Below are positions 5,739-32,837 of a DNA stretch of 64,000 nucleotides, piece by piece. The DNA is from Cymodocea nodosa. Lineage: Eukaryota; Streptophyta; Magnoliopsida; Alismatales; Cymodoceaceae. Each line of letters begins with the position of its first letter. The stretch's first letter is position 1. The translations under genes and the position numbers were made by a program. A model generated the notes under the pieces. The model made no database searches, was not told the DNA's origin, and was given only the letters and a program-made list of their open reading frames with translations. The stretch spans positions 12,643,001-12,707,000 of the forward strand of contig CM072336.1 in the NCBI GenBank assembly GCA_036874045.1, in the 5' to 3' direction.

Positions 5739-5744
5739 GTAAGT
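5739..5744 (+). promoter_or_regulatory. Candidate leader splice donor (GTAAGT)
   Basis: GTAAGT is kept in all gypsy LTRs of the window: here, near 31992, near 40781 and, on the minus strand, near 4020 in G1. It lies in the presumed 5' leader and could be joined to acceptors in front of downstream ORFs. No transcript evidence is available. Confidence 0.4.
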
Positions 5745-6591: not shown

Positions 6592-6609
6592 TGGCACCGT
6601 TGCTGGGGA
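6592..6609 (+). other. G2 primer binding site (tRNA-Asp)
   Basis: TGGCACCGTTGCTGGGGA complements the tRNA-Asp 3' end with two transitions relative to G1-like sites. It starts 7 bases after the LTR end, the same spacing as in G1. Confidence 0.85.
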
Positions 6610-6671
6610 ATTGAATTGAATTGATATAAGCAACTGTTAGAGCTGTTTTGCTTTAATAGCTAGAGTGTTGT

Positions 6672-10014: not shown

Positions 10015-10017
10015 TTA

Positions 10018-11340
10018 ATGACCATCAACACAATGCCTTGGTATGCAGACATAGTTAATTACTTAGTAACTGGTTTAACACCTAAGGATTGGAATAGACA
10101 GGATAAAAAATTATTTTTCTCGAGAGTAAACTATTACTATTGGGAAGACCCATACTTATTTAAGAAATGTCCTGATTTGGTTTTAAGGAGGTGTGTTCCA
10201 GAAACTGAATATCTGTGTATATTGTCTTTCTATCATGATCGAGCTTGTGGAGGGTATTTTGGTTCAGGGAAAACTACTGTAAAAATTCTGCAATGTGGGT
10301 TTTATTGGCCAACACTATTCAAAGATGCTCATAAATATTGCTTAAGTTGTTTAGGATTTCAGCAAATAGGAAGAATATCAAAGAGGAATATGATGCCTCT
10401 TAATCCTATTGTTGAGGTTGAAATCTTTGATGTGTGGTGAATAGATTTTATGGGTCCATTTCCTATGTCTAATCAATTTAATTACATATTGTTGGGGGTG
10501 GATTATGTATCTAAATGGATAGAAGCTATTCCTACAAAAACTAATGACAACAAAGTGGTAATACAATTTATATGAACAAATATATTTGCCAGATTTGGAA
10601 TACCTAAAGCTATTATCAATGATAGAGGAACTCATTTCTGTAATAGAAGTTTTGAAGCCTTAATGAAGAAATATGGAGTAAACCACAAAATTGCAACATC
10701 ATATCATCCGCAAACAAGTGGACAAGTAGAAAGTGCTAACAAACAAATTAAGTTAATCTTAGAAAAAGTAGTAAATCCTACTAGAACAGATTGGGCTAAT
10801 AGATTGATAGATACACGTTGGGCTTATAGAACTGCTTATAAGACAAGCTTAGGTATGTCACCTTTTAGGCTATTATATGGAAAAAGGTATCATTTACTTG
10901 CTGAAATAGAACATAAAGCTTATTGGGCATTAAAAACTTTGAATACTAATTTAAATCAAGCTTCTAAAAATAGAAAAATGCAACTAATTGAATTAGAAGA
11001 ATTTAGAAATGAAGTTTATTCGAAAACTATAGGAGAAAAAGAGAAAATGAAATTCTAGCATGATAGGAAAATTATTCCAAAAAGCTTTGAAATAGGACAA
11101 TAAGTATATCTTTATATGGCTAGACTCCACAACCATCCAGGAAAATTAAGATCTAGATGGGCAGAATCTTACATAGTTCGAAATATTTATCCTTATGGAG
11201 CTATTGAAATTAAAAATCCTAAAAATTAGAATATATTTAAAGTAAATGGACAAAGACTTTGACCTATTTTGAAAACACCAAAAAGCTCCTTTGGAATTAT
11301 AGAAGAAGTCAGAGTAGAGGACTACTCGAGCTTTACTTAG
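10018..11340 (+). pseudogene. int: G2 integrase
   Basis: This is in the same frame as RNase H, after a stop at 10012-10014. The N-terminal zinc-binding part has FYHDRACGGYF and HKYCLSCLGFQ, with the last Cys replaced. The catalytic core has the first Asp in IDFMGPFPMSNQF, the second in INDRGTHF and the Glu in SGQVESANKQIK. The C-terminal part runs to about 11340 with stops at 11056 and 11101. A TGA at 10438 replaces Trp (DVW*IDFMGPF). The 'FMGPFP' and 'DYVSKWIEAI' strings are typical of Athila integrases. Confidence 0.88.
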
Positions 11341-11929
11341 TAAGAAATCAGTTTTTATGTTTATATATAAAAAAAAAACACACACACACACATTAATATA
11401 TATATATATATATATTTATAATATAAAAATCGTTGCGATTCAACCGACCGAATCCATCGGTATGACCGGAACATAAAAAATATGTATATTAATTTTCAGA
11501 AAAAAAGTTGGTTTTACCGAAACATAGAATCGGTTCAACCGAAAAAAAATTAGGTCTGACCAAAACATCGTATCGGTTAAACCGGTAAAAAAAAAAAAAT
11601 CGAAAAACTATTATCTATAGTACTTTTATTATTATATCTGTTTGTACGGGGAGTCCATTAAGTTACGCCTAACTCAACGAGCTTACTCCGTTGAGTCTTG
11701 AGTTAGTCAACGAGCTTATTTTGTTGAGTTAACTATATCTCAATGGAGTACTGTAGCTAAGACCGCAGATAAGAGAGTAATAGTTTGTTCGGGAAATGAC
11801 CCGATTACCCGCCTAAACTTAGGGTTTATTTATCTTAAACCTAGGGTTTTAGGGGCATTATCTGGCAAATCATTTAGAATCTAGAATAGTAGAAATCAGA
11901 GCGATTCCGTGCTGTTGTGTAACTCCACG
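11341..11929 (+). promoter_or_regulatory. Spacer between integrase and ORFx with motif clusters
   Basis: No ORF is seen. In order it holds a CA and TA simple repeat (11380-11415), repeated CGGTT/AACCG inverted motifs (11435-11575, e.g. ATCGGTTCAACCGA), a GTTGAGTTA/TAACTCAAC cluster (11655-11750), and an AT-rich stretch with AAACCTAGGGTTT just before the ORFx ATG. G3 keeps the same arrangement at 58859-59640. A role as internal promoter is inferred. Confidence 0.5.
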
Positions 11930-14073
11930 ATGAGGAAGATGACGTCTGAATTCTGGGAAGATGTAGTGGACACCGCACAGTTTCTGAAGGAATCCGAAGA
12001 ATGGCACACGCGGTAAAAGATCCGGAATACAACAAGAGAGAAAGAGCTACAAAAGGTAGAATCAAAACTCTTTAACTTGAGGAAAGTTTTAGTTGAGTTA
12101 GAAATACAAATACCACAGATAATGGAGACATGAATTAGAGTGGCAATTGAAATTGCAGTTAGCAAAGAAAGAAAAATCCGGCCAAACAATGAAGTAGCCC
12201 TAGAGCTAATTCAACGTAAAGCCAGATTGTGGTTTAAGAAACACATTGCTGGTCGAGGAAGCTGGGCAATATGGGAGCAACAACGAGCAAGAGAATAGGA
12301 AGAATCAATTACTGAAAGACCTGTTCCTAAGCAACAACAGTCAGGACCTCCGGTTCAGCCAATAGAGCCATTGCCACGATTAGCATTTGTTTGGCCGAGA
12401 ACTGAAGAAGAAGTGAAAGAATTTACTAGCTTGGTCAAAATAGTAAGAGACCAAGGTGACATTGAAGAAATAGCTACGACTAAGACACATATTTTATATG
12501 ATGCCAATAAGAGAAGAAGGGCCGAAGAAAAGATGAGGGCCCAATACAAAATAAAGGTTGAGCAGCATCAGGCAGTAGCTAAATCAAGTGTTGCAAGAGA
12601 AGCTGAGGCTGGTCCTTCGAGACCAGTAATTATAGAGAAAGTTAAACAGGAAGAGCCAGTACCTGTGGCTCGAAGGCCTGTAAAGCCTACTTTTGTAGAT
12701 TTAATTTTAGAAGAAGAAGAGGAAGAACAGGCACAATTAATCAGAAAAAAGAAAGGAAAAGAAAAAATGCTTGAAATTGAGGAAATTAAATCTGAAGTAC
12801 CAATTTTCATAGGGCCTGTGGAGCAAATTTTTATAAACCTGCTATCCGATCCTGAGGAGCAGGAGGAGCAAAGACAAGAAGAAAATTAGGCTGAAATTAG
12901 TTTGCGGCCTGTATAAGAAGAAACAGAAATTAGGGCAGAAACTGAATTGCCTGTAACTCCATCCCAATCTATTACAGAATCAGAAAGAACAGTAACAGAA
13001 TAGATTGGTAGTTAGGAGGAAGAAGAAAGAGTAGAAAATGAAGAGGCTGAAAGAAGCCATTTGGACAAAAATAACTTCACAAATTCCACTGAAGAGCAAG
13101 AAACTCTTCAGCAATTTATGGAAAGAATTCAAGACAGAGTGGAGAGTTCTGCTAGCTCACCACCACACATAGAAATAGAAATAAAAATTCAGGAATCTGT
13201 AGAGAATGTTCAAATGCAGCCTATAGAAGAGGAATATCAAGAACAAACCCCTCTAGAATAGCAAAGTCACATTCCTGACCCGACTGAAACAACAGTTCTG
13301 AATGAAGTACATTTTTGGAGTCAGGAAGCTTATATCAAATACCAAGAGGTTACGATATTATTTACAGTAGACCAGTAAATTGGGATGGAATGCAAGAAAT
13401 CAAAGATTTATTTGAATTCCAAGGTCTACTGTAGTTTATTTCTCAAGAAAGAGGGCATGCAGTTTATGAGAATTTAGTGCTTTGTTTTTATGCAAATTTA
13501 AGAGAAGGAGAAGGAGGATTAATTTCCAACGTGGAGGAAGCTGATGTACAGATAACACCAGAGCTTCTCCACAACATTTTTGGATTGAAGAATGAAGGAC
13601 TAAAAATTTTGGAAGACACAACTACCGTTGAATGGACTGAACAAGAAATCAAGGACAGTTTGGCTATCAATCCTAGTGTGCCTTTATTAAACAGATTGAA
13701 GCATTTAAATGGTAAAGCACACATGGTAGCTAACATTCTGATTAAAAATGTCTATCAACGATAGGGCCATGACATAGAATTAAGTCAATTTGTCAAATGG
13801 GTCACATATGCAGTTGTAAACAGGATTCAAATAAATTGGTCTACAGTTTTTATCTCCAAGCTAAAAGCAGTAAAGAAAAAATTGTTTTATGGAGATTTGA
13901 TTCCACTACTGATGGTGGATTGTATTGATTTCATGAAATGGACATCAAAAAGGATTAGATCAAGAACAATTTCAGTGAAAGAATATAGAAATTTTGTAGC
14001 TACAGAGATAACTGTACCTTTTGGAGGAATTACAGGAGCTGTAGAAAGAATTAATCAATTAAAACTTCAATAG
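11930..14073 (+). pseudogene. G2 ORFx: accessory ORF with plant-transposon-protein-like C-terminal domain
   Basis: The start MRKMTSEFWEDVVDTAQFL is shared with G3 (58858). The N-terminal third is basic and helical, and the middle is acidic and disordered (runs of Glu around 12710-12890). The C-terminal domain (13345-14073) begins RPVNWDGMQEIKDLFEFQGL and continues with FYANLREGEGG and ITPELLHNIFGLKNEG. It ends in a coiled-coil-like tail. Stops occur at 12016, 12889, 13001, 13259 and others, and there is a frameshift near 13340. It resembles the 'putative plant transposon protein' domain (family recalled from memory, not searched) and the ORFx of C1/C2. Function is unknown; it could be an env-position protein. 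Confidence 0.72.
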
Positions 14074-14944
14074 AAAAACTCCAGAAGGAAGTAGATGAAC
14101 TTAGGAATAGAGATTAAATTATATTGTTCGTCTACTTGTATAATTATATGAAAATGCATGATGTATTTATACTGTAAATTGATTCATATTAATGAATATA
14201 ATTTTTCAGATGCTATTTTCATACATGTTTTGGATGTGAAATGAATGGAATTTATTGAATATTATATAATTTGTGGAACTTTATGAATGAATATGTAACA
14301 TATTTAAAATTTGCTGAATGACAAGATAAATGCTTAAAAAATTTTACATGTTGCAAGGTAAAATGTAAATTCTGCAAACATAAAATGACCTGCAAGTTAA
14401 ATCTTTATATAATGTTCAGATTTAAACCAATTTTTATTAGAATGATGCATTAATGACATAGATTTAACTTTATTTCAGTTAGCAGAATGAAAAAAAAAAG
14501 TAGAGAGAAATTTACGAGAGTAAACTTAGAGGTTGCTAAGTGTTAACTCAATGAAGTAAGTTCGTTGAGTTAACCGTAACTCTATGAGGTCAGTAATATA
14601 ATATAAGGTCACTCCGTTGAGTTATTTGTAACTCAACGAAGTTAGTCTGTTGAGTTAGCAATAGTAACCGACTGTGTTCCGTTGAGTTATTTGTAACTCA
14701 ACGAGGTTAGTTCGTGGATTAAGCAGAACGATTATTCTTTTAACCACGAACGAAACTTCGTCGGCTTAGCGGTTACTAAAATTTGAAATTAATAGTGGTA
14801 CACGTACCCATAAAAACAGGAACCACGATGCACGTTGCAAGACGCGTTCTTGCAACAAGATTTATTCACTTTATGGATGTACATTATATATATAAATCAG
14901 AATGTTATTTATGAGTTACTAGCACTTTTAAAAGAAAGGAGAAT
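14074..14944 (+). promoter_or_regulatory. Spacer before gag with GTTGAGTTA cluster and TATA box
   Basis: No ORF is seen. Between 14535 and 14720 there are at least three GTTGAGTTA/TAACTCAAC inverted pairs. A strong TATA stretch (TATATATATAAAT, 14885-14897) lies 48 bases before the first ATG of gag. G3 has the matching motif cluster at 56060-56245. This looks like a promoter for a separate gag transcript (inference). Confidence 0.5.
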
Positions 14945-15570
14945 ATGTTGGAGGAATTGGAAGGCGAAGTAGCTGATTTGACTTCATCCGACAACAAATA
15001 TTTACTGAATGGAAAACTTAAGATTGGTATGTAATTAATCTTCTGCTATTTATTTATGAGCACATGGACTCGTTCTCTAAGCACTAAATGATTAATAAGA
15101 AGACCAACCTAGGAATTTTAATTGCAAAGGAGTACTAAAAAATTTTTTGAACTGAACTTTAACGAAATTCTTTGGGGTGTAGATAACCTTTCTTTAAAAG
15201 AGAATGTAGAAATGGCTGTTCCAATAGAAAAACCATTAGGAGAAATTCTGTATTTGGAATTAGTTGATGAACCTTCACGTATTCGATTGCCAAACTTTGA
15301 GGGAGATAGGTTTGAACTGAAATCTAATTATATTAGTCATTGCCACATTTTCATGAATTAGAAAGAGAGGATGCCTATTATTTCCTTAGAGAGTTTAATG
15401 AAGTTTGTCAAATGATGAAAATGCCAAACATGAGTATAGATGCTATTAAACTTGGATATATCCCTTTTTCTTTAAAAGACATAGCTAAGAGATGGTTATC
15501 TACTCTATCACCTGATTCAATTTCTACATGGACTGAATTTTGCTCTGTTTTTCTGGAAAAATATTATCCA
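14945..15570 (+). pseudogene. gag: G2 gag capsid gene, 5' part (interrupted by C1)
   Basis: A short ATG-initiated exon-like stretch (14945-15026) ends at GGTATGTAAT, which looks like a splice donor and is kept in G3. Downstream is the retrotransposon capsid domain: IRLPNFEGDRFELKSNYIS, then LEREDAYYFLREFNEVCQM and IPFSLKDIAKRWLSTLSPDS, typical of Athila Gag. A one-base loss near 15340 shifts the frame. The ORF is cut at 15570 by C1 and resumes at 26602; the reading frame agrees if C1 and one target copy are removed. The gene lies 3' of pol and ORFx, not in the usual place after the primer site. Confidence 0.85.
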
Positions 15571-15839
15571 TGTTGAGTATTTTTGTTTTGATGATGTGTG
15601 CTGAATGAAAATAATCATATTTGCTCAATTACTATTGCTTGTGAAAAGAAATTAAAATCATCAATTAATACAGAAAAAGCTTACTGATATAAATACTTGT
15701 CTGTATTGGATCTGAAGTTAATAACTAGTCATTTCGTTGCATTAATTTCTCATTTAGCTAAACGTTAAGTTAACGTGTGTTTTTATTGAAAAGCATGATA
15801 TGTTTTAATGTTATATCTTCTGTATCATGAACAGTGCAC

Positions 15840-16350
15840 GTTTAGACAACTCGTTAAGTTAGAGTTTTGTTTGTATAGAGGTCACGTGAGAACTCGTTAA
15901 GTTAGAGGCTTAAAGGTTAAAATAGGTCACGTGATAACTGGTTATGTTAGTGAGTAAAAGAAGAGACGAACTCGCTAAGTTAGTGTTATACACGTGGTGA
16001 AATTATAAGTTACGAATGTTGTATTGTATCACGTGAGGTGCACATGTTTAACTCGTTAAGTTAACATAACTAAACGCGTTGAGTTGCTATATTGAACACT
16101 AAGGCAACGCGTTAGGTTAGCGTTATAAACTTAAGTTGTTATTTTTGCACGTGGTAAAATTCTTATTATAAAAACATTTGTTTATTACTGGTTCGTTGAG
16201 TTATCATAACACAACAGAGATGGTTCATTGAGATAGCATAACACCACAGACATAGTTCGTTGAGTTAGCTACAGTACTTGTCACGTGAAATGGCACATGA
16301 GGAACTCGTTAAGTTAGAAACGTTAAGTTATATATATACTTGTGTTACTC
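15840..16350 (+). promoter_or_regulatory. C1 LTR array of G-boxes and AACTCGTTAAGTTAG motifs
   Basis: Six CACGTG cores lie at 15883, 15928, 15991, 16030, 16148 and 16282. They are interleaved with about ten copies of AACTCGTTAAGTTA or CGTTGAGTTA. The array lies 230 to 700 bases upstream of the TATA box and is kept in all four copia LTRs. It is probably an enhancer; factor classes (bZIP/bHLH for CACGTG, MYB for CNGTTR) are inferred from known cores. Confidence 0.6.
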
Positions 16351-16584
16351 GTTTAGTTAACATTAAAGTAACGACTTCTTATTACACTGATGAAAAACTT
16401 TTGGACGAGAAGGTTTATTTTGTAGGAAATTTTTCAGAGATCCAAGATTGATGAATAAAGAAAATTCGAAATATAAACGTGGGTTAGAACGTATGTGTTT
16501 CGATGAAGGAAAAAGAAAAGACATGGAGAAGTGGAAAACTAGTAGTGGTTAAACGTGAAGGATATGCATGAAATGAAGATACAG

Positions 16585-16593
16585 TATAAAAGG
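16585..16593 (+). promoter_or_regulatory. C1 5' LTR TATA box
   Basis: TATAAAAGG is conserved at 26033, 42251 and 52622 in the other copia LTRs. The start site is expected near 16615. Confidence 0.7.
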
Positions 16594-16617
16594 CATAGAA
16601 TTCTCGTTGATCAAACC

Positions 16618-16695
16618 ATCCTTGCACACAAAAGAAAAATCTTTTCAAGGATCAAACCATCCCTACACACTAAAAGAAAAATCTTTTTCAGGGAT
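16618..16695 (+). other. Two tandem hairpins at the expected 5' end of copia RNA
   Basis: First stem: ATCCTTG (16618) with CAAGGAT (16646). Second stem: ATCCCTA here, ATCCCTG in the other LTRs (16659), with CAGGGAT (16689). The loops are near copies of each other. The stems differ by a paired T:A to C:G change, which favours a kept structure. Confidence 0.45.
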
Positions 16696-17149
16696 CAAAA
16701 ACACCTTCTTGGGGAAAATCTCTCAAGTGGAAGAAAGTTCAGTGAAGCATAAAAAGGTAAGATTTTCGTCACTGAAGATTTGAAGTATCAAAAGAAAGCA
16801 AATTCGGTGAAGCATGAAAAGACAAGATATTCGTCACTGAAGAATTGCTGAAGAAGAAAAAGAAGAAGAAAGATCTCAAACAGGGAGAAAAGTTTTAAAT
16901 TCTGCAAATTAGTTTTCTCTGTTTGTAGTTATGAAATTGTTTAGATGATACATGATATCGAAATATAATTGCATCTACAATTTCTGAGGAGAATTGAATT
17001 GTATATTGTAATTGAAACCTCAAATAAAAATGATTTTATGAAAACAATGTCTCGACTTGTTTTTGAGTTTTAAAGTTTCAATTATATTTCAGAAAATATT
17101 AAAAATACACAATTCACCCCCCTCTTATGTAGCCATACGATCCTACAAG

Positions 17150-17161
17150 TAGTATCAGAGC
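17150..17161 (+). other. C1 primer binding site (initiator tRNA-Met)
   Basis: TAGTATCAGAGC differs by one transition from the common plant copia site TGGTATCAGAGC and starts 2 bases after the LTR end. Confidence 0.85.
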
Positions 17162-17347
17162 TTTGTTAATAATCTTTGATATAAAATCAATACCAACTTA
17201 TTTAATATCATTGCTTATTCTACCTTCCTTGTTTTTAAACAGAAATTAATATCTGAGCATACGTTTAACTTTCTTGATTTAAGGCTCAAGTTGTTTTAAA
17301 GTTTTTAGACTGTTTAAAATCAAATAGGTTGAAAAATCTAAGGTAAA

Positions 17348-18301
17348 ATGGATACTGGAAATGGTAATTTTTCTTTATATGAAGGCCAAAATCTTAATCG
17401 TCCTCCTTTATCTGATGGAATACATTTTGAATATTGGAAATATAGGATGACTATTTTTCTTCAAAGTATAGATCATAAATTGTGGTTCATGTTTTCTAAA
17501 CCATATACTCCGTTAACTACTCCTTATAATACTTGGACAATTACTGAAAAAGAAAATGAAACTCTGAATGCTAAGGGCTTAAATATTTTATTTTGTGCAT
17601 TGAGTTATGAACAGTTTAGTAAAGTGTCGGCATATAAATCTGCTTATGAGGTGTGGCATGCATTAGAAGTTTCACATGAAGGTACTTCTCAAGTTAAAGA
17701 GACAAAAATAAACATGTTGATTCATAAGTATGAACTCTTTAAGATGCATGAAGACGAAAATATTTCTGAGATGTTTTCCAGATTTCTTGATATCATAAAC
17801 TCTTTACAATGTTTAGGAAAGAATTTTGAACAGAAGAATTTGGTGAGGAAAATTCTCAGATCCCTAAGTTCTAAATGGTCTCAGAAAGTAACATCAATTG
17901 AGGTATCACGAGATTTAAATGTTTATACTATGAATGAAATTATAGGAAATTTAACAGCTTATGAAGTTCAATTAAATGAATCACTAAGTCACAACAAACT
18001 AAAAATGAAGAAAGAAATAGCCTTCGAAATTAATTCAGATTCTGATATATCTACTGATTCTGACGAGGATTTGATTTTGCTGACTAGGAAATTCAAGAAA
18101 GCATGGAAAGCTAGGAAACAGCAAAGGAACAAAAATGATAAACCCTCAACGTCAAAATCATTGAATGACAAGAATTCTTCATCCAGAAAGTATGTATGTT
18201 ACAACTGTAAGAAACCTGGACATCTTTCTCTAGATTGTCCTATGAGGAAAAATGAAAAGTAAAGTAGGACAAATCAGAAGAAGACGGCTCAGAAAACTTA
18301 G
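17348..18301 (+). pseudogene. gag: C1 gag: capsid and zinc knuckle
   Basis: It starts MDTGNGNFSLYEGQNLNRPP and runs through a copia Gag capsid domain (YWKYRMTIFLQSID near residues 30-45; MLIHKYELFKM; ISEMFSRFLDIINSL). A perfect CCHC knuckle (CYNCKKPGHLSLDC) lies near residues 283-296. A TAA at 18260 is a Gln codon in C2. The next in-frame stop, TAG at 18299, is present in both C1 and C2 and may be the family's real gag terminator. The product assembles the particle coat and binds RNA. Confidence 0.9.
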
Positions 18302-19853
18302 AAAAAGTTTTACAAGAAAAAGGCTTTGAAGGTCACTTGGGATGACACATCTGAAGAGTCTGAATCTGAGGAATCAGCATCAAAATCTTCACATTCAGAT
18401 GGAGAACAAGAGTTAGAAGATGTTGCTCATGTGTGCTTCATGGCAGATGAGTCTGAGGTAATATCTGATCCTGAAAGTCATTCAGATTTCAACTTTGATG
18501 AATTATTATGTTCTTATCATTCATTATTACAAAAACTTAAAGTATGTAAACTGGAAAATAAGAATATTAGAAAATCTTTATCCATTATGGAAGAAGAAAA
18601 TTGTTTCCTGTCTACTACTTTAGAAAAGTTTAAATGTGATAATGAAAATCATGCTAGAGATTTGCAAAAATTTAGATTTAATGAATGTATCTTGCATGAA
18701 CAAATACAGAATATAAATGCTGAAAAATTAAAGATAGAATCTGAAAATGAAATGTTGAGAAACAATATCAATGAACTTGAATTAGAGATAGAAAAATTAA
18801 AACTGAGAGAGCAAGATTTAAATTCTACCTTTGAGAAATGGAATTTAAGTCAAACTAAGTTAGATAAACTAACTAGTACCCCTACGGTGTCTTATAAATT
18901 TGGCTTAGGATTTGATTATCCTGAATATCCTGAATCTCAAGCTAATAAAGGATTTATTAGTTGCAGTTCAAGTAAATCTAAGACTAAAATTCCTTTTATT
19001 ATGAAACAAGGTAATAAATATGTAGAAGTAGGTACTTCAAGGGATGAATCATGCAGTAATAATATAAATCAATGTGATTTGTCAAATTGTACTTCTAACA
19101 TGACTATAAATGTTTCTAAAAATCTTGTTTCTTGTTCTGGAAATTCAGTTTCTAATGTTTCTAAAATTTCAGACAATTGTTGTAAACTGAAAATTCAGAA
19201 ACCTGAGCATGTAATTCAATACACTGGTATTAGACCAATTACTCATTCTGCATGTGATAAAACAAAAAATTCTTGTGCAGAAAAAGATTTTGTATGTATG
19301 GAAAGTGTTAATACAAGTACAAAATCTTGGTATGAACTTACTGAAATAAATAAGCATGACCAAAATAAATTAACATCTGATAAAAATATGTTTGGTCTTG
19401 TTATACTACATCTGAAAACAAAAAGAATGATTGCAAAAGCAATAATGCTATATGTGAGTATGAAGCTAATGATAAATCAATAGTACTTACAACTAATAAG
19501 AATATAAATGATAATGTTAAACTATTTTTAAACAAAAAGAAGAAATATGCGTTTAATGAACTTGGTCCTCAACAACATTGGGTACCAAGAAAAAGTTTTT
19601 CTTAATTTGTGTTGCATGAGGAAACAACATCAAAATGGATCTTGGACAGTGGAGCGTCAAGTCACATGACCGGACAAAAAAGTCTATTTCAAAATTTTAC
19701 AAATACCATGAAAGGAAGTGTAACATTTGGAAACAAAAGCAAAGATAAAATCATAGGTATGGGCAATGTTCAAATAACTCCTACTTGTGTTATTTCGAAT
19801 GTACTATTTGTAGAAAACCTAGGTTTTAATTTGCTGAGTGTCATAAATGGATA
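18302..19853 (+). pseudogene. C1 coiled-coil Gag extension and protease
   Basis: This is in frame with gag after the shared TAG. An acidic stretch (DDTSEESESEESASKS) leads into a long coiled coil (18500-18860, Leu/Glu/Lys/Asn heptads) and a 'FGLGFDYPEYPE' motif region. A frameshift near 19400 precedes QQHWVPRKSFS. The protease follows with WILDSGASSHMTG (active-site DSG near 19640) and ends at the deletion joint near 19850. C2 lacks most of this extension. Confidence 0.75.
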
Positions 19854-20665
19854 AAGGTATATTTTTAAATCAGGAAAAATATGTAGATGAAATGCTTAAG
19901 AAATTTAATTTTAATGATATAAGGATTTGAGGAACTCCTATGAGTACTACTTTAAAGTTAGATATTGATGACATAGGAAAATCTATAGATCAAAGAAAAT
20001 ACAGAAGTATGATTGGTTCTTTACTTTATTTGACTACTAGTAGACTTGATATTATGTTTGCTGTGTGTGTTTGTGCTAGATTTCAATCTAATCCTAAAGA
20101 ATCACACTTAGTTGCAGTTAAAAGAATATTTAGATATATACAAGGAACTAAAAATTTTAGACTGTATTATTCTAAGGATAGTTCAATAGATCTTATAGGA
20201 TATACTGATGCTGATTATGCAGGATCTAAATCTGATAGAAAGAGTACCAATGGCACATGTCAATTATTGGGAAATAATTTGGTGTCATGGTTTAGTAAAA
20301 AGTAAAATTATGTAGCACTTTCTACTACAGAAGCTGAATATGTTGTTGCTGCACTGTGTTGCACTCAGATTCTGTGGATAAGGCAAACTTTAGAAGATTT
20401 TGGATTATCTTATGATACAACTGAGATTTATTGTGACAGTAGTTCTGTAATAAATCTTTCCAAAAATCATGTATTACATTCAAGAGCAAAACATATAGAG
20501 GTTAGACATCATTTTCTAAGAGATAACGTAATTAAAGGAAAAATTAAATTAGAATTTGTGTCTAGTAAAAATCAATTAGCTGATATATTTACAAAACCTC
20601 TAGACGAAAATACATTATGCAACATTAGATTAAATTTAGGTATTTGTAGGCTATGTGATGTGTAA
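19854..20665 (+). pseudogene. pol: C1 RT tail and RNase H (integrase and RT core deleted)
   Basis: Sequence jumps from protease (LLSVI) to the end of RT (GIFLNQEKYVDEMLKKF). Compared with C2, about 2.05 kb with all of integrase and the RT catalytic core is missing; the joint shares AAA between both sides. RNase H is recognisable by GYTDADYAGSKSD, LSTTEAEYV, HIEVRHHFLRD and ADIFTKPLDE. TAA at 20303 replaces the Gln of 'SKKQN'. It ends at TAA 20663-20665. Confidence 0.88.
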
Positions 20666-20839
20666 AATGCTTAAACTCCACATCAAAAGATAAATATTAT
20701 TGATGATGTTGTTCACCTCATAGATATTATATACTTATTATAAATATCTAAAGTAATATCTAAACTGCTGCTTAAGATACTATGTATTTATTGTAAAATC
20801 ATAATAGTATCTTATTGATTTTAAGTAGTTTATCAATTT

Positions 20840-21740
20840 TAATGGTTTTTATGATTTTAAGTGGAAATGTAAATGAAAAACATTAAATACTTCTGACATT
20901 CTGAAATTTTGATTAAATGTTTTCTTTGAATCAAGGAAAATGCATATGATCATGCATAAATTTGACTTAATTGATTAAAATTGTAGAATAAGTTATATGT
21001 AACTCATCTTAAACTGTTAATCAAAAGTATAAGCTTATTGAAACTGATTCATATTCTCAATACAATCATAGAAGTAAAAATTGTATGAGATTTGTGTTTT
21101 ATTGCATCTGTATTAATGGAATACATATATACTGTGCTTAAAATGAAAAGTGCTTACAAAGTAAAAATCTTTGAGAGTTTATTGATCAGTTTGATCACGA
21201 GCCTTTTGTACTTGAGCAGATAGGTATGTAAGGATTGTTGTCCTGAAAAAGGATTCTTTAAATCTGGCAACCTAAGGTCTTGATTAGATCTGGGATTGTT
21301 GACTGAAAGCTCATTACACAGGTACATTAGAAAGCTCTTGTATGATTCAAGCTTTTCAAACTAACTTTTAAAGAAAATTATCAATATTTATTGTTTTGAA
21401 AAGAAAAAGTTGTTTCATTAATTACAGATATCTTTGAATCGCATATAGTTTATACCAATATGACTACTGATTTATTGAATCAACATTAGTACTTTTGAAA
21501 ACGTTTATTTGAGATACATTCTTTTATTCTCCTTGAATTAATCGAATTGAGTTTAAAGTTGTGTTTTGATTCATATATAGTAGGAATTGATTCTGGAAAT
21601 CACTTTTGATGATGTTAGGATAACGAAAGTCTCTGAAAAGAAAATGTAAAAGTATAGTTATACTTAACATCTATTGTCACTACAAGTATATTTTGTATTT
21701 TGATTGAATATATTTGAAGTATATTTGTAGGGGGAGGATT
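20840..21740 (+). repeat. Noncoding block shared with the gypsy element G2
   Basis: No ORF is seen. The block is closely similar to G2 29480-30415, for example TTTTGTACTTGAGCAGATAG followed by GTATGTAAGGATTGTTG in both. Similarity ends at a GTAGGGGGAGG purine tract (21729-21739). It is also present in C2 (about 47370-48290). Confidence 0.8.
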
Positions 21741-22249
21741 AACAATGTCGAAAATAGATTAATATAATTTAGAATACAAATCTTAGTTAATTTGAATTAA
21801 TGTCCTCTTAAAATCTTGATGAAATAATTTAAAAAGACAAATAAACTATTTTAGATTCAAAGGACAAAATGTTCAAATAGTTTACAATGTTCTCAAGATA
21901 ATGTTAAGTTTAGCATGTGTGTTGTTTTCGGAATGTTTCAGTTGGAAGCATCTGAAAATTGTTGTGTACTAACTAGATGTTATGTTAGATAAGGTAACGT
22001 GTAAAACTGCCTCTAAACAACGTTTTACTCGTTAGGTTGGTTAACTCAACGAGTTATACTTGAATATTTCGGGTATCTTGATTGAATAAACTTTATTCAA
22101 TATTTATTTAATTTCTAAACCCGACTTCTCTTCACGTTGAGTTATACGCCTAAAAACCCTATTTAAACACTTATTACATGGGGACTTAGGTTATTTGTAA
22201 ACTTTGTCAAGAAAATCTTTCCAGCATGTTGCTGTTACAACCTACGACG
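21740..22249 (+). promoter_or_regulatory. C1 promoter-like region of ORFx
   Basis: No ORF is seen. It contains two GTTGAGTTA-type sites (22035-22055 and 22135-22145) and CCTATTTAAAC (about 22158), a TATA-like box about 90 bases before the ATG at 22250. The same features occur in C2 (48590-48806). An internal promoter is inferred. Confidence 0.45.
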
Positions 22250-24517
22250 ATGGTCTCCAAGTTCTACAAAGGTCATGGCAGAGGAGAAGGCAAAAGCAGA
22301 AGAGATGCAAAAGGAAAAGAAATAGAGAATGATGAAGTTCCACGTACTTGGTTCAAGAAAATATTTCGAGTGGACAAAAGGTTAGAAGAACTTTATAGAG
22401 ATTACTTCTTTTCTCAGGATATATTAGATGACGTTAGACAAGAACTTCAACATACTGATGCAAGTATTACATACATGGGTATTCAAAGTAAATATGATAG
22501 AGAATACAGAATGAAATGTGCTGAGATTTCATTTTTGGAACAGTTTGCAAAATATTTGGAAAAAGGTGTAGGTTCATCAAATAGAACTCCTCAAACTCCT
22601 ATAAATGGTACAAGACTACATGCATTTGAGGAAGAGCATGAATCAGCTATCCCTACTCCTTTATATTCAAAACAAGTAGAATCAGATATTGCTGTAGACA
22701 AAACAAAAGTTGATAGTCTTCGAAAGGCCGTTGCAATAGAAAGTGCCTTAGAAGAATTAAAGCAGAAAAATTTTATGGTGCAATTTGAAAAGAAAACGGC
22801 AATACTTGAAAAGGAGAAACAGAAATGTTATAGAAGAAGGAAAGTCAGAAAAATTATGTCTAAGGAAACAAAGTCTATTGAAGAAGGAAAATCAGATGAA
22901 AATTTATTTCCAATGGACAATGTATGTCTAGACATTGTACCTTATTGTGCATCTGATAAACTCATCAGTTCTGAACACACTAAAACTGATGAAGATAATG
23001 AGACTTTATTTTCCCTTGCTAGAAAACTTGAGAAGAAATCCAAGTCAAATATGAGCTCAAGTTTTTCTATTAGTACAAGCCCTGATGATGCAGAAATTGA
23101 CAAATCAGAGCATCAAGCACCTAACATTGAACAAGTTATTGCAGATATAATTGACAATGTTGAGGTAGTAACTAGTTCAAAGGCTGAATTGTCTGGAGTA
23201 GCAGATATTGAAATTGTTAAGATTCTAGAAGAGCTAAAAGTTAACCAGCTTTCTACAGAATCTATAGAAGCAGAGTCTGAGAATTCACAGCATGAATCAA
23301 TGGGATTATCTATTGAACAAAATGAACAATTACAGACAGATACACCAGCTGTAGAATTTGTGGAAAAATTGTACTCTGAACATTCTATAGAGACTGAACA
23401 GATGAATGTTGAGCATATTGACAATGTTCCTAACACTGTTGAAGCTGAAGAATCAAGCTTACCTGAGCAGCTTCAAGATAATATTTTGGAAGAGGAACAA
23501 CATGACATTCATTTTGAAGAAGAGGTTCCTGAAGATGAATTAAACTCTGAATCACAGCTTCAGGTATCACCTTCTTTGTGTACAATATTAAAAATTCAAG
23601 GTAATGCAATTCATTTTAGATCTGAAGAAGCATTGCAGAAATACAATAATCTGATTACATGTCAGATTCTGCATGCTCGTCCAATAAAATTCAGAAATTT
23701 GATGGAAATAAGAGATCTGTTTGAGTTTCAAGGCCTCATTAAATTCTTGCCAGTAGGAACGAAATGGAAGCAATATACAGAGCTTATTGTAGCTTTTTAA
23801 AGCAATCTGGACAAGAATGGAAATTTTCTGAAAATTCAAATAAATGAATAGGAGTTTATATTGTCTCCTGAGTTAATTTTTGAAGTTTTAGGATTAAAGA
23901 ATGAAGGTGTTGTTGTTACCAATAAATTTGACATAATAAGACAACTGGAATGGAACATTCAGTCTTTATCAAAAATTCCAGATGTATATTCTAAAATGAG
24001 ATTAATGGGAAATCTAAATGTAGAGGCTAGATTTATTGCAAATATATTGCATGCAAATTTATTTCAGAGAGTTGGACACAATTTGGAAGTCAGCAGAAGC
24101 TGTTTATATGCAACTTATGGCCTACTAAATAGAATTCAATTAAATTGGTTTGATGTTTTTATGTCTCAACTATAGCATATGAGTTTAAAGTTATTTTATG
24201 GTGATGCTGTTTGTAGAATCCTTGCAAGCCAATTGACTTTATCTGACTGGCCCTCTGAAACTAAAGGCATGAGAGCATTTAGTGTCAAAGATTTGCAAAA
24301 ATTCCAGGCCATGCATAAACCTCAACGACAACAACAACAACAACCTGATACAGACCATATACAACAACAACAACAAAGTTATTCAGTTCAAGCAGAACAG
24401 CAAACCCAGCTACCTCCTGACTTAGATGTAGTGCTTAACGACATCAGAAATGATATTAGGCATCTAGGAGATAAAATATGTAATGCTATAAGTGATATAC
24501 TTAGGAGGGGTCGATAA
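22250..24517 (+). pseudogene. C1 ORFx: accessory ORF after pol, with domain shared with gypsy ORFx
   Basis: I chose ATG 22250 (MVSKFYKGHGRG); an upstream ATG at 22226 is absent from C2. The N-terminal part is basic (RGEGKSRRDAKGKE) with a helical segment. The middle is long and acidic (residues about 210-450). The C-terminal domain starts RPIKFRNLMEIRDLFEFQGL and continues SPELIFEVLGLKNEGV and HANLFQRVGHNLEV, then a Gln-rich tract (24325-24400) and a short coiled coil. Stops at 23798, 23847 and 24173 are sense codons in C2. It occupies the env-like position of SIRE elements, but no clear signal peptide or membrane segment is seen. Function is unknown. Confidence 0.78.
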
Positions 24518-25018
24518 CTGTTTTTGTTTGTTTCTGAATACAAAATGTAATGTTTGTATTACTTGTTTGATTTGATTGAACAATACATTTTTCTGTAAAT
24601 GTCTTCAATTATTATTCTTGTTTACAGAAAGAGTTGTTGTACTTATATCTCTTATATATATATATATATTTTTTGTAATTATCTTTTTGATTAATGACAA
24701 AAAGGGGGAGAAATATTATAAAAAGATGATTATGATCTTAATTGCATATATATATTATAAAAGGAGATGCTATTTAAATGGTTATTGTAATCTGACAGAT
24801 GATAATTAGAAAACTGATACTTATACAATTATTGACATCTGAGAGTTTTAGTTCTGAGAGGTAAAATTTTAACAAACAATAGAAATAAGCTTAAGTGAAC
24901 TTAAGTCAACAAACAAGTTTGTTGAATTAAAAGTTAACCCAACAAAGGTGCTTTGTTGAGTTAAACATATTTCATAATTGATTTAATATGGTTTTGTCAT
25001 CATCAAAAAGGGGGAGAT
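24518..25018 (+). other. C1 3' untranslated region with two polypurine tracts
   Basis: AAAAAGGGGGAGA occurs twice: 24699-24711 and 25005-25017. Only the second abuts the 3' LTR (one base away) and is the expected plus-strand primer; the first could be a second priming site. A GTTGAGTTA cluster lies at 24915-24965. C2 keeps the last tract (51562-51574) but its inner copy has lost bases. Confidence 0.7.
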
Positions 25019-26601
25019 TGTTGAGTATTTTTGTTTTGATGATGTGTGCTGAATGAAAATAATCATATTTGCTCAATTACTATTGCTTGTGAAAAGAAAT
25101 TAAAATCATCAATTAATACAGAAAAAGCTTACTGATATAAATACTTGTCTGTATTGGATCTGAAGTTAATAACTAGTCGTTTCGTTGCATTAATTTCTCA
25201 TTTAGCTAAACGTTAAGTTAACGCGTGTTTTTATTGAAAAGCATGATATGTTTTAATGTTATATCTTCTGTATCATGAACAGTGCACGTTTAGACAACTC
25301 GTTAAGTTAGAGTTTTGTTTGTATAGAGGTCACGTGAGAACTCGTTAAGTTAGAGGCTTAAAGGTTAAAATAGGTCACGTGATAACTCGTTAAGTTAGTG
25401 AGTAAAAGAAGAGATGAACTCGTTAAGTTAGTGTTATACACGTGGTGAAATTATAAGTTACGAATGTTGTATTGTATCACGTGAGGTGCACATGTTTAAC
25501 TCGTTAAGTTAACATAACTAAACGCGTTGAGTTGCTATATTGAACACTAAGGCAACGCGTTAGGTTAGCGTTATAAACTTAAGTTGTTATTTTTGCACGT
25601 GGTAAAATTCTTATTATAAAAACATTTGTTTATTACTAGTTCGTTGAGTTATCATAACACAACGGAGATGGCTTGTTGAGATAGCATAACACCATGGACA
25701 TAGTTCGTTGAGTTAGCTACAATACTTGTCACGTGAAATGGCACATGAGGAACTCGTTAAGTTAGAAACGTTAAGTTATATATATACTTGTGTTACTTGT
25801 GTAGTTAACATTAAAGTAATGACTTCTTATTACGCTGATGAAAAACTTTTGGACGAGAAAGTTTATTTTGCAGGAAATTTTTCAGAGATCCAAGACTGAT
25901 GATTAAAGAAAATTTGAAATATAAACGTGGGTTAGAATGTGTGTGTTTCGATGAAGGAAAAAGAAAAGACGTGGAGAAGTGGAAAACTAGTAGTGGTTAA
26001 ACGTGAAGGATATGTATGAAATGAAGATATAGTATAAAAGGCATAGAATTCTCGTTGATCAAACCATCCTTGCACACAAAAAGAAAAATCTTTTCAAGGA
26101 TCAAACCATCCCTGCACACCAAAAGAAAAATCTTTTTCAGGGATCAAAAACACCTCTTCTCGGGGAAAATCTCTCAAGTGGAAGAAAGTTCAGTGAAGCA
26201 TAAAAAGGTAAGATTTTCGTCACTGAAGATTTGAAGTTTCAGAAGAAAGCAAATTCGATGAAGCATGAAAAGACAAGATATTCGTCACTGAAGAATTGCT
26301 GAAGAAGAAAAAGAAGAAGAAGAAAGATCTCAAACAGGGAGAAAAGTTTTAAATTCCGCAAATTAGTTTTCTCTCTTTGTAGTTATGAAATTGTTTAGAT
26401 GATACATGGTATCAAAATATAATTGCATCTACAATTTCTGAGGAGAATTGAATTGTATATTGTAATTGAAACCTTGAATAAAAATGATTTTATGAAAACA
26501 ATGTCTCGACTTGTTTTTGAGTTTTAAAGTTTTAATTATATTTTAGAAAATATTAAAAATACACAATTCACCCCCCTCTTGTGTAGCCATACGATCCTAC
26601 A
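25019..26601 (+). repeat. C1 3' LTR
   Basis: The 1583-bp LTR starts TGTTGAG and ends CCTACA, with the TATA box at 26033. It differs from the 5' LTR by scattered substitutions, more than half of them visibly transitions in the stretches compared. Confidence 0.93.
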
Positions 26602-27434
26602 ATCAAACACATCAAATGATTAAAAAGAAGAAGGAAATATTAATGTGTAGCCAAAAATAGGGTTTATCCTTCTAGAAATATTTTGAAAGATTTAAAGATT
26701 TACTAACTCAATGCCCACATCATGCAATGAGTAAAGCACAATTAATAGGTATAATTTATGTAGACATAGATGTTTCAACGAAATCTTTATTAGAATCTAC
26801 TTGTCAAAATGGATTTTTAAAGTAATGTAGTGAAGAAGCATGGTTATATTTAGAAAACTTTGCAAAAAGAATTGCACATTGGGAAAACTCGACTGAAGCT
26901 ATTGCAGATAAAAAAATATTGCCAAGGGAAATGCATGAAATAGATTCAAGTACTATGCTTGAGGTGAAATTAACTGAATTAACGAAGAAAATAGAAGAGT
27001 TATCATTAAATCAAAAGCTAGCAGAAAAGAATGCAAACATAAATGATTTAGATATTATTTATGCTAGAAACGAGAGAGATAACTTGGGAAATTCTTATAA
27101 TCCTAATTAGAGAAATCACCTGAATTTATCTTAGAGAAACAATAATTTCCAGGGAGGAGAAAATGGAAATGAGAAGAATATAAGTTATGAAGTATTATTG
27201 GAACAAGGATCTAGAATAGAGAAATTAGAAAAGATAATCCAACAATTAAACAATCGTTTAGATTTTATATTTGGAAATGCTGCAATTCAAAATCAGAATA
27301 GAAATATACCACTTAGACAGAAGGAACCAATGGAAGTTAGACCTACTGGAGGATTGCCAATACAAGCTATACCTAATCCTATCAATAGAACAGTTAATGA
27401 AATTGATACCTCTTCTGGGAGGGTAGCTGAATGA
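26602..27434 (+). pseudogene. gag: G2 gag capsid gene, 3' part
   Basis: The gene resumes after C1. It includes FKDLLTQCPHHAMSKAQLIG, then the helical KLTELTKKIEELSLNQK, a YNPN stretch (SYNPNWRNHPNLSW in G3, as in Athila Gags) and a coiled coil SRIEKLEKIIQQLNNRLDF. It ends NEIDTSSGRVAE at TGA 27432. Several stops occur (near 26650, 26823 and 27108). There is no zinc knuckle in this ORF: the knuckle is encoded by ORF1 at the element's 5' end. Confidence 0.83.
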
Positions 27435-27624
27435 AGCAGCATATCTAAAGCAACTATCTATTTATATATATGTTTTTATTTATAGTTAATAGTATCGTAG
27501 AGTCAGTCCTTAACTCAACGAACTTATTCTGTTGAGTTATGCCTTAACTCTACGAGGGTGTGTAGTAGTTATGTTAATTTTTTGTCTCTGCTAAATTTTT
27601 GTTTGTGTTATACAGAATCAACAA
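27435..27624 (+). promoter_or_regulatory. Spacer before F-box gene: motif cluster and splice-acceptor-like end
   Basis: It holds GTTGAGTTA/TAACTCAAC motifs at 27505-27555 and a T-rich tract ending TTGTGTTATACAG (27612-27624 area), followed within 10 bases by the F-box ATG. G3 keeps both the motifs (54215-54275) and the tract ending GTTATACAG, suggesting a used 3' splice site. Confidence 0.5.
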
Positions 27625-28767
27625 ATGGAATTGATGCAATTACCGTTGGATGCACTAAGGGAAGTACTGAGTAATTTATCAGCTAAAGATCTGTGCAGGC
27701 TGTGTTGTGTATCAAAGGAAATTAAAGACTATATTGAAGAAAAATATTTTCAGGGACTACATGCTGCAAAAATGACTAAGATTAGAGATGGATTCATATG
27801 GAGGGCATTTAATCGTAGTTCAATTAATCATGAATATCTTGCTATGGAAGAAACTACTGGAATTCCACCCAATACATTAGAAGGAATAAATCATATTAGG
27901 GGGATAGATGAAGGATTAATCATATACAAGACGAGACCAATGTATGCAAGTTTATTATTACCTGATATTTTGATAAGAAATCTTATAATAGGAGAAGAAT
28001 GGAATATAGGAAGACCTAATAGATTTGAAGTACCAACTGTAAATTGTGGATTTGTTTTAATATTTTCTGACAAAAATTCTGCAATTCCTGAAAAATTATA
28101 TTATTGGAGACCAATAGGAAATTAGGGTGAATATTTACGCTTAAGTGTGTATAATTTTCTAAATAGATCTTGGAATGAAAATATTATGATATATCTAGGA
28201 CAAAAATCATTAATTAACCAAACACATGTCATACTTGATGGATATATATATCTTGTCATAGATATATCAATTGCATTTGGATCTGATTTATACATAGTGA
28301 GAATAGACAATTATGATGAATATATAGAAATTTTACCTATACTGAGTGATATAGCTAAACCACCATCTACAGAATTTAATAAAATTCAAATAGGAATGTG
28401 GTATAATGAAGAAGATGATCCTACTTTATGTTTGATAAGATGATGGGATGAATTGATGAAATTTCAAATATGGATTATGGAAGACATTAATGAATGGAAG
28501 TGGGAAGAGGAGTATATTGAAATAGATGTAGAAATAGAAACTTCTACATTACCCTGGAACCAAAAAGGATCCCTTTCTGCATTTCATATCATTAATGGTA
28601 ATACACTTGTATTTGGAATTTATAATTTATTACACGTTTACAAATTAAGAAGGAACAAGAACTGCATGAAAACAGAATTAATAGCAAGAAAAACTATGCC
28701 TAAAAAGTTTGCTTGGACTGATACATTTATTCCATTTGTTCCTACTTTTCAATCATGTTCTTAAGAT
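27625..28767 (+). pseudogene. G2 F-box protein gene carried by the retrotransposon
   Basis: One frame of about 380 codons runs from ATG 27625 to TAA 28762-28764, broken by TAG at 28123 (Trp in G3) and TGA at 28441. Residues 5-40 match an F-box (LPLDALREVLSNL, then KDLCRLCCVSKEI). F-box proteins recruit targets to SCF ubiquitin ligases through Skp1. The rest looks like a substrate-recognition region of F-box-associated type: IPPNTLEGINHIRGIDEGLI, YYWRPIGN and VILDGYIYLV. It lies between gag and the 3' LTR. G3 has a homologue in the same place. Probably a captured host gene; the target is unknown. Confidence 0.8.
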
Positions 28768-30546: not shown

Positions 30547-32837
30547 TTTTTAGAATGAAAAAATACATATTATTAACGGTTAAATGATGGTTAATTGCAT
30601 AATATTTAGCTTATCATATAAGAATTAAGCCATTATGCTATAATTGCACTGTTATATGCTTTAATTAGAATTACTACTTAATTTTGGGGAATTAATGTCA
30701 ATTTAGTACATTTTTGAACTGTCGGTAAGTTGTAGGCTGTGCAATTCTTAAGTATTCGAATTTTCTGATATTTTGGATAGTTATGTTTAACATACCGAAC
30801 ATATTTCAAACAGTTATGTTTAACAGACCGAACATGTCGGATAGTTATGTTTAAATTGCTGAATAGTTATATTTTAAAAGAATATTTTATTATTTCCAGA
30901 AGTACATGTGTCAAAACCATAATGCATGACTTAAGTGAACTTTCGGTGAGTTATCTATAACTATCCGAAATTGCAGTTGGGCATCAGATAGTTATATGTG
31001 TAACTCTCCGAAATCTCTTTTTATTTATAAAATAGCTGTGGACACGTGTCATGTTCTGGTAAAGTGACTTAAGTGGATTTTCGGTGAGTTATCTATAACT
31101 ATCCGAAAATGCATCTGAGCATTGGATAGTTAGACCTGTAACTCTCCGAAATGTGTATTTTATTATTAAACTATTGTTGACACGTGTCGAGATCTAGTAG
31201 ATTTACTTAAGTTATATATCGGTGAGTTATTTGTAACTATCCGAAATGCATCTGAGCATCAGATAGTTAAGTTTGTAAGTATCCGAAATGCATCTAGCAT
31301 TAGATAGTTAAGTTTGTAAGCATCCGAAATGCACCTAGGCATCAGATAGTTAAATTTATGCACGTGTTTTATAGTTAAATCAACGAAGAAAGTCCATTGA
31401 GTTATCTATAACTCCATGGACTATTTATTTTCTAATATGCCACTGTAGCAGTTGCAGAAACAGGACAGTTGGAAGAAAAACCACGATTGCATGTATTATG
31501 CAGGGAGAAGAAATCATCGCCGTTGATATGAATGAAGGAAATCCAACTGACCATTCAAGCAGAAGCAGTTACTACTGAAGAAATATAAAAGAAAAGAAGA
31601 AAAAGAAGAAAAGGGTGCGTATGTGATCGATGGACGACCAGTGTGTACAGAGGAGGAGCACCGAGCTTTCTATAGGTAGTATCGGCAATTCTCGAAAGTA
31701 TCACACCAACCATCGTTACCACCACCATATCCATCATAATCACCAACCATCGAAGGTCTGTGAGAATACTTTTTTGATGTCGGGTCGATTCCGAGCAAAA
31801 CACGGTGCTTGACAACCACTGTGAGGAGTGATCGCGTCATGGGAAGGGAATCCATTTTCACCAAGCGTCGACTCATATTTCAGGAGATTGTAAAGCTTCT
31901 AGCCTTGACTTCAGGTTGATGCCTGTATGCTGAAGAGGAGATTATCTTGCAATTCTGGACTTGCGATTCTATAGGAAGAGGAGACATGATTGTAAGTGGT
32001 TTAATTTTCAGTGGTGTAATCACATCGTATGTAGTGACAAAAGTATTTACTGTCGATTGAGATTACTTTACATTTCACCTTTCGCCCATTTCCATGTTCA
32101 TATTAAACCAAAAATACCAAAAACAACTTATCTACTATTGTATGTTGTATTTGAGTGTTGTATTGTTTGTGTTGTATCATGATTAATGTTATCTTTGTCA
32201 GTGTTGTGATTGTTTTATGTTTGTTTTAGTTTTACAGTTTACTGAAATTGGTTCGTTCAAAAGACTTAAAGATTTTAATGGTTACTGTTTGAATTATCTG
32301 AATGTTAGTATTGCTTAATGATAAATCCAGTGTTTACTAACATTAAAGAGCTTAATTAATGTTATTTACAATCTGTGGAATCGCCCAATGGCTGGCTGAA
32401 TTCCTCTGTAAATAGCAGTATTTAAAAAGAAAAGATAGGCTCGTGGAGTTAACTTAAGTCCACGAGGTTAGTCCGTTGAGTTAGCTATAACTCAACGAAC
32501 TTTATCCATTGAGTTAACTGTAATTCAACGGAGATCTTATTGAATATATAAATTTGATTGTTAGCAAACGAACATTTCTAAACTCCTAAGCAATTCCCTA
32601 TGGGATCGACCTGTACTTACACATTGATACAATAGACACTATGCACTTGCTATTAAAGTACAAATTGGAATTAATATCTAAATTGTATTAAAGGTTGTTT
32701 GTTTACTTCTAAAAGAAAAAGAATAGGCATAAAGATAAATTAACTAAGTAAAAACAGAAGTAACAAATCCAATTTTTCTGGTACGTTATTGGAGATCTAA
32801 TCAGATATTCTGGTGTCATGCTGGGAAAACACAAACA
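30547..32837 (+). repeat. G2 3' LTR
   Basis: The 2291-bp LTR directly follows the polypurine tract. Its first bases are TTTTTAG in place of TGTTTAG, and it ends CACAAACA. It is followed by CTGAT, the right target copy. Confidence 0.92.

What the first reader, a model, noticed from the sequence alone, without database searches (positions are those of the whole stretch)
27625..28767. F-box gene carried inside an Athila-like retrotransposon, in two copies
The ORF between gag and the 3' LTR of G2 has a clear N-terminal F-box and a long C-terminal region; G3 (53328-54134) has a diverged homologue in the same position with the same upstream acceptor-like sequence. Its two in-frame stops in G2 are single events (one is Trp in G3), so the ORF was open in the ancestor. 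Plant viruses are known to use F-box proteins to degrade silencing factors; a retrotransposon doing this would be new to me. That role is a hypothesis only.
Basis: partly seen in the sequence, partly recalled or inferred. Interest (0 to 1): 0.88.

Follow-up and report, generated by a model that had tools for sequence, protein, structure and literature searches.

The report
F-box gene inside plant retrotransposon
A large plant jumping element carries its own copy of a gene of the kind cells use to mark proteins for destruction, and two old, now broken copies suggest that the element kept this gene working while it was active.

Summary
The ORF at 27625-28764 (+) has an N-terminal F-box (Pfam PF00646, E=3.5e-10); the second copy, on the minus strand, has one too (9.6e-9). 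G2 is a bounded Athila-like element (LTRs about 4327-6584 and 30547-32837, tRNA-Asp-type PBS, one-mismatch TSD) interrupted by a Copia element at 15571-26602, so the gene moved inside a transposing unit. G2-G3 comparison supports past purifying selection: omega 0.47 against a neutral median of 0.92 (0 of 500 simulations as low), two stops in the pair against 6.8 expected (P 0.02), only 3-bp internal gaps; noncoding controls reached P<=0.005 in 0 of 86 frame-windows. The C-terminal part is unidentified. Gene order is odd: zinc-knuckle part, PR, RT, RH, IN, env-like, gag capsid, F-box, LTR. Best reading: an accessory gene, made from a spliced subgenomic RNA, that recruits the host SCF ubiquitin ligase; degradation of a silencing factor is plausible but untested. 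Copy number, host species and source gene could not be examined (protein database off, genome search unanswered). One paper mentions an F-box-family gene flanked by LTRs in Thlaspi, so carriage as such has a precedent.

The parts
27625..28764 (+). F-box gene of G2, 379 codons plus stop, broken by in-frame stops at 28123 and 28441; F-box at residues 4-40
   Evidence: PF00646 E=3.5e-10; read-through 5e-10; selection test
53337..54143 (-). F-box gene of G3, truncated at its 3' end, one in-frame stop
   Evidence: PF00646 E=9.6e-9 on 53979-54206; 72% protein identity to G2
27608..27618 (+). acceptor-like TTATACAG|AAT before the F-box ATG, identical in G3 at 54162-54152 (-)
   Evidence: by itself not rarer than chance in the window
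14884..15032 (+). possible internal promoter and first exon upstream of gag: TATA-like stretch near 14884, donor-like TG|GTATGT at 15026/15027
   Evidence: alignment of G2 and G3; function inferred
4327..6584 (+). 5' LTR of G2
   Evidence: 93.1% to the 3' LTR in the self-comparison; K80 0.057
30547..32837 (+). 3' LTR of G2, preceded by a purine-rich stretch
6592..6604 (+). primer binding site of the tRNA-Asp type, 2 mismatches; exact in G1 at 3158-3170 (-)
   Evidence: 0.03 matches expected by chance
6660..11229 (+). zinc-knuckle part of gag (seen by eye; no Pfam match), protease, RT, RNase H, integrase of G2, several stops and frame breaks
   Evidence: RT_RNaseH 1.8e-35, RVT_1 1.2e-7, Integrase_H2C2 3.1e-8; rve 1e-5, below its cut-off; protease and RT best seen in G1, RVT_1 1e-28, Asp_protease_2 3.6e-5
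11750..14073 (+). env-position ORF region of G2 (start approximate)
   Evidence: Transposase_32 E=8.6e-4 on 13435-13761, 19.7 bits against a cut-off of 45; omega 0.13-0.41 over three stretches
15122..15570 (+). gag capsid part of G2, up to the Copia insertion
   Evidence: PF03732 Retrotrans_gag E=5.4e-7 on 15337-15573
26603..27434 (+). gag capsid part of G2 after the Copia insertion
   Evidence: omega 0.41, P 0.003 in the right frame
15571..26602 (+). Copia element C1 nested in G2 (not part of the finding)
   Evidence: LTRs 15571-17148 and 25019-26602; 5-base overlap in the match to G3

Best explanation
An Athila-like retrotransposon family gained an F-box gene once, before G2 and G3 separated, and kept it as an accessory gene. 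SHOWN by sequence: an F-box in both copies, the same place in the element, carriage inside an LTR- and near-TSD-bounded insertion, and a substitution, stop and gap pattern that neutral change does not readily give. INFERRED: the gene is made from a subgenomic spliced RNA (shared acceptor just before the ATG; possible TATA box and donor upstream of gag). The F-box binds host SKP1 and the roughly 340-residue C-terminal part, perhaps a diverged plant F-box-associated fold, brings a substrate to the SCF ubiquitin ligase. The likeliest benefit is removal of a host factor that limits the element (a silencing or antiviral component), by analogy with polerovirus P0. The confidence given is for the accessory SCF-adaptor reading; the specific silencing-factor target gets about 0.25.
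For: F-box profile hits in both copies. Same position and shared gag-F-box intergene. Omega 0.47 against a neutral median 0.92, 0 of 500 as low; P<=0.005 in 0 of 86 noncoding frame-windows. Two stops in the pair, at different codons, against 6.8 expected, P 0.02; one in G3 alone, P 0.005. Two internal gaps, both 3 bp. The gag, pol and env stretches of the same pair give omegas of 0.13-0.66, so the F-box behaves like the element's other genes. Plant-virus precedent: P0 with an F-box-like motif that binds SKP1 and targets AGO1 (PMC6593998, abstract start in the listing).
Against: Only two copies, both broken, were available. Bare omega at or below 0.47 also occurs in 20 of 86 noncoding frame-windows, and P<=0.05 in 10 of 86, so the test is liberal at 5%. 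The F-box part alone gives P 0.033. No match of the C-terminal part to a substrate domain beyond FBA_3 E=0.62, which does not recur in longer pieces. No structure, no transcript, no SKP1 test. G2 has an ATG in the supposed first exon that G3 lacks.
Confidence: 0.55

Rival explanations
1. Passenger: the element transduced a host F-box gene that is mere cargo, of no benefit to the element; the apparent constraint is chance or a residue of few changes.
For: Gene capture by plant LTR elements is common and mostly cargo (PMC7264820, part 1 read); an F-box-family gene flanked by LTRs is mentioned in Thlaspi arvense (PMC8764390, passages). Only two copies are seen here.
Against: Omega, stops and gaps against neutral expectation; the same order and intergene in two insertions that have diverged by dS about 0.3.
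Confidence: 0.25
2. The F-box protein acts on the element's own proteins (for instance Gag or integrase turnover) through SCF, setting copy number or particle balance, not on a host defence factor.
For: It lies directly behind the gag capsid part, with which it may share a promoter.
Against: No direct evidence; substrate unknown.
Confidence: 0.1
3. The F-box motif is vestigial and the protein works without SCF through its C-terminal part.
For: The C-terminal part matches no known substrate domain and still shows omega 0.54, P 0.010.
Against: The F-box end is at least as constrained as the rest: omega 0.25 over codons 1-45, P 0.033.
Confidence: 0.1

Closest known systems
Athila lineage of Ty3/Gypsy (Athila, Calypso, Diaspora)
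   Same: tRNA-Asp-type primer binding site a few bases behind the LTR, Gypsy-type RT, RNase H and integrase, gag, an ORF in the env position (PMC1142308 passages; PMC11728184 passages)
   Different: Gag capsid part lies behind pol and the env-position ORF, and an F-box gene follows it
Orchid Ty3/Gypsy elements with an m6A demethylase ORF (PMC9289625, section 12 and passages)
   Same: LTR element that kept an extra ORF with a cellular regulatory domain over rounds of replication
   Different: Domain is a dioxygenase; function shown in vitro there; here an F-box, no assay
Pol-less and recombinant Athila elements of Arabidopsis (PMC2410132, passages)
   Same: Gag with or without env lacking pol, ORFs under purifying selection, recombination among Athila families
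   Different: Here pol-env and gag-F-box blocks lie in one element; the word F-box does not occur in that paper's main text
Polerovirus P0 and crinivirus p22, F-box-like silencing suppressors (PMC6593998, PMC6784205; abstract starts in the listing)
   Same: Element-coded F-box that could recruit SKP1
   Different: RNA viruses; no sequence relation was found or tested directly; suppression not shown here
F-box-family gene flanked by LTRs in Thlaspi arvense (PMC8764390, passages)
   Same: F-box gene within LTRs
   Different: Treated there as a host gene duplicated by retrotransposition; nothing said in the passages of it as a gene of an element family

Membership tests
Athila lineage (Ty3/Gypsy) | tRNA-Asp primer binding site behind the 5' LTR | tested here: met
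   Exact in G1, 2 mismatches in G2; 0.03 expected by chance. The pattern was recalled; tRNA-Asp for Calypso and Diaspora is
Athila lineage (Ty3/Gypsy) | Gypsy order RT - RNase H - integrase with Gypsy-type profiles | tested here: met
   RVT_1, RT_RNaseH, Integrase_H2C2, rve in that order; rve below its cut-off
Athila lineage (Ty3/Gypsy) | gag before pol | tested here: not met
   Capsid part lies behind pol in G2 and G3; only a zinc-knuckle-like part precedes protease. So 'Athila-like', with a rearranged order
Athila lineage (Ty3/Gypsy) | Athila-type env-position ORF (Transposase_32 or Athila ORF-1) | tested here: inconclusive
   Transposase_32 E=8.6e-4, under the curated cut-off
Athila lineage (Ty3/Gypsy) | RT phylogeny within the Athila clade | not tested
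   No reference RT sequences were fetched
F-box proteins | F-box domain above the curated cut-off | tested here: met
   39.8 bits in G2 and 35.3 in G3 against 20.5
F-box proteins | C-terminal substrate-binding domain | tested here: inconclusive
   FBA_3 E=0.62 once; none in longer pieces
F-box proteins | Binds SKP1 in an SCF complex | not testable with these tools
   Needs an assay
Viral F-box silencing suppressors (P0 type) | Sequence relation to P0 | tested here: inconclusive
   The Pfam scans list only F-box families for the whole ORF; no P0 sequence was compared directly
Viral F-box silencing suppressors (P0 type) | Suppresses RNA silencing | not testable with these tools
   Needs an assay

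The most novel reading that the evidence does not exclude
A family of plant LTR retrotransposons evolved a virus-like counter-defence gene: an F-box adaptor that turns the host SCF ubiquitin ligase against a silencing factor, expressed together with the gag capsid from an internal promoter as a separate module behind pol.
Probability: 0.22. Interest if true: 0.88.

Novelty: new variant of a known kind. Interest (0 to 1): 0.64.

Why it matters
Plant retrotransposons face RNA silencing as viruses do, yet few retrotransposon-coded counter-defence genes are known (recalled). An F-box gene that appears to have been kept under selection in an LTR element is a concrete candidate with a testable partner, SKP1. 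It would add to the short list of cellular regulatory domains kept by LTR elements, and the rearranged order (capsid behind pol) bears on how such elements balance Gag and Pol.

Tried and rejected
Chance ORF: rejected by two profile hits and the selection test. Local duplication as the source of both copies: disfavoured for G2, which has its own LTR pair and near-TSD and sits in another copy's LTR; not settled for G3, whose 3' end is lost. A host gene merely next to an element: rejected, it lies inside the LTRs. Fold identification: both AlphaFold2 models were too poor (mean pLDDT 35.1 and 30.6), so no fold search was run. PDB sequence search: 2 weak irrelevant hits, E 0.47 and 0.95. Relatives of the first piece (166 aa) in IMG/VR and in prokaryote genomes: 7 and 44 pattern matches, none confirmed by tblastn, as expected of a plant gene. 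The first omega for 26603-27434 was in the wrong frame and is superseded. The RNase H stretch was mostly out of phase in the alignment and is not leaned on.

Literature: 9 searches ran. The word F-box does not occur in the main text of PMC9289625, PMC11963269, PMC6317226, PMC11728184, PMC2410132 or PMC7264820 (find); of these I read section 12 of PMC9289625, part 1 of 3 of PMC7264820, and passages of the rest. Against full novelty: PMC8764390 names one F-box-family gene flanked by LTRs in Thlaspi arvense (passages). PMC3852528 lists 10 F-box sequences in a sunflower repeat database, without placing them in elements (passages). The supplementary chart of all extra domains in PMC9289625 was not seen, so an F-box hit there is possible.

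Full report
WHAT WAS CHECKED. The ORF at 27625-28764 (+) is there as described, with two in-frame stops at 28123 and 28441. Its open first piece (166 aa) matches Pfam F-box PF00646 with E=3.5e-10 and F-box-like PF12937 with E=5.5e-6. The second copy lies on the minus strand, 54143 down to 53337; its open piece 53979-54206 matches PF00646 with E=9.6e-9. The read-through proteins are 72% identical over the shared part. tblastn of the three pieces against the window finds no third copy (other hits E 0.33 or worse).

THE CARRIER. Self-comparison resolves nested elements. G2 has LTRs at about 4327-6584 and 30547-32837 (K80 0.057), a tRNA-Asp-type PBS at 6592 with 2 mismatches, and flanks CTAAT (4322-4326) and CTGAT (32838-32842), a one-mismatch TSD. 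It lies within the LTR of another, minus-strand copy, G1, whose LTR pieces flank it on both sides. A Copia element, C1 (15571-26602), is inserted in G2's gag part, with a 5-base overlap in the match to G3, as expected of a TSD. Without C1, G2 is about 17.5 kb. G3 runs on the minus strand from the window's end to about 53337, where it is cut next to a + strand LTR fragment.

GENE ORDER. In G2 the order is: zinc-knuckle-like part of gag (by eye; no Pfam match), protease, RT, RNase H, integrase, env-position ORF, gag capsid part, F-box. G3 matches G2 block by block in the same order; its first gag piece (55241-55720) and the piece 54656-54925 gave no Pfam gag match of their own, so gag in G3 rests on the match to G2 (69-70% by tblastn, E 2e-41). 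In G2 only about 55 bp separate the PBS match from the first open stretch at 6660, so the capsid part is missing at the usual place; the 5' end of G1 looks the same. G3's 5' end is outside the window. Athila elements of Arabidopsis include pol-less LTR-gag and LTR-gag-env forms and recombinants among families (PMC2410132, passages). I infer that a gag-F-box element recombined with a pol-env element.

SELECTION. For the shared F-box stretch (266 codons) dN is 0.151, dS 0.321 and omega 0.47. Neutral change simulated with the same substitution spectrum gives a median of 0.92 (0.63-1.47), and 0 of 500 runs are as low. The two internal gaps are 3 bp each. The null puts all 132 differences on one lineage and expects 6.8 new stops: the one stop in G3 has P 0.005, and the fairer count of both copies' stops (2, at different codons) has P 0.02. 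A control on noncoding alignments (LTRs and the gag-upstream stretch; 86 frame-windows, not independent) gives P<=0.005 in 0 of 86 and P<=0.05 in 10 of 86, so the test is liberal at 5%; omega at or below 0.47 occurs in 20 of 86, so the bare ratio is not enough. Codons 1-45 give omega 0.25 (P 0.033), the rest 0.54 (P 0.010). Stretches of gag, pol and env of the same pair give 0.13-0.66; not all are significant (RT 0.66, P 0.32; zinc-knuckle part 0.60, P 0.08). Part of the divergence arose after insertion, when no constraint is expected. With half the G2 LTR distance (0.028) for G2, and one to two times that for G3 (assumed), omega before insertion would be about 0.28-0.36 (hand calculation). 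Both copies share the gag-F-box intergene, so one capture preceded this divergence.

EXPRESSION. An acceptor-like TTATACAG|AAT ends 9 nt before the ATG in G2 and is the same in G3. Upstream of gag both copies share a TATA-like stretch (about 14884 in G2) and a donor-like TG|GTATGT inside a 22-base exact run. Splicing from 15026 to 27616 would give an F-box mRNA that skips gag. This is inference; no transcript was seen. G2 has an ATG in the supposed first exon that G3 lacks.

PROTEIN. The two AlphaFold2 models are poor (mean pLDDT 35.1 and 30.6); both place helices over the F-box (H8-16, H20-26, H31-41 in the first), with pLDDT under 60 even there. It has one weak FBA_3 match, E=0.62, which does not recur in longer pieces. 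The substrate domain is unknown.

FUNCTION AND NOVELTY. The F-box and the selection on it point to an SCF adaptor that benefits the element. Polerovirus P0 is the working analogy, not a shown relative. Additional ORFs in plant LTR elements are a known kind (PMC7264820; PMC9289625), including an RNA demethylase active in vitro, and an F-box-family gene flanked by LTRs is mentioned in Thlaspi (PMC8764390). What I did not find in 9 searches is an F-box gene described as a kept gene of an LTR element family. Hence: new variant of a known kind. I lowered interest slightly, from 0.66 to 0.64, after seeing the Thlaspi passage.

LIMITS. 

Noticed in passing
14440-15570, 26603-27434; 54332-56350 (-): The gag capsid part lies behind pol and the env-position ORF in G2 and G3, with its own TATA-like stretch and donor-like site upstream; at the usual place only a zinc-knuckle-like part is left.
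   Followed up: partly
23861-24514 (Copia C1) and 13435-14070 (G2): The env-position ORFs of the Copia and of the Athila-like element are homologous: 38% over 151 aa, E=4e-31, which suggests exchange of this module between superfamilies.
   Followed up: partly
29412-30400; 20804-21601; 47497-48285: Noncoding DNA between the F-box and the 3' LTR of G2 is about 70% identical over some 870 bp to interior DNA of the two Copia elements.
   Followed up: no
whole window; e.g. 11670-11731, 14544-14705, 22042-22144, 27511-27556: A short motif, TAACTCAACGAA with up to 2 mismatches, occurs 141 times against 9.4 expected, in the LTRs of both superfamilies and upstream of the env-position ORFs, gag and the F-box; perhaps an enhancer or a recombination site.
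   Followed up: partly
35330-37687 (+): An open 785-codon ORF that looks like a membrane protein by eye; no Pfam family up to E=1.
   Followed up: partly
53198-53337: A + strand Athila-type LTR, split by Copia C2, ends about 300 bp short and abuts the inverted, truncated F-box of G3: an inversion or deletion junction.
   Followed up: no
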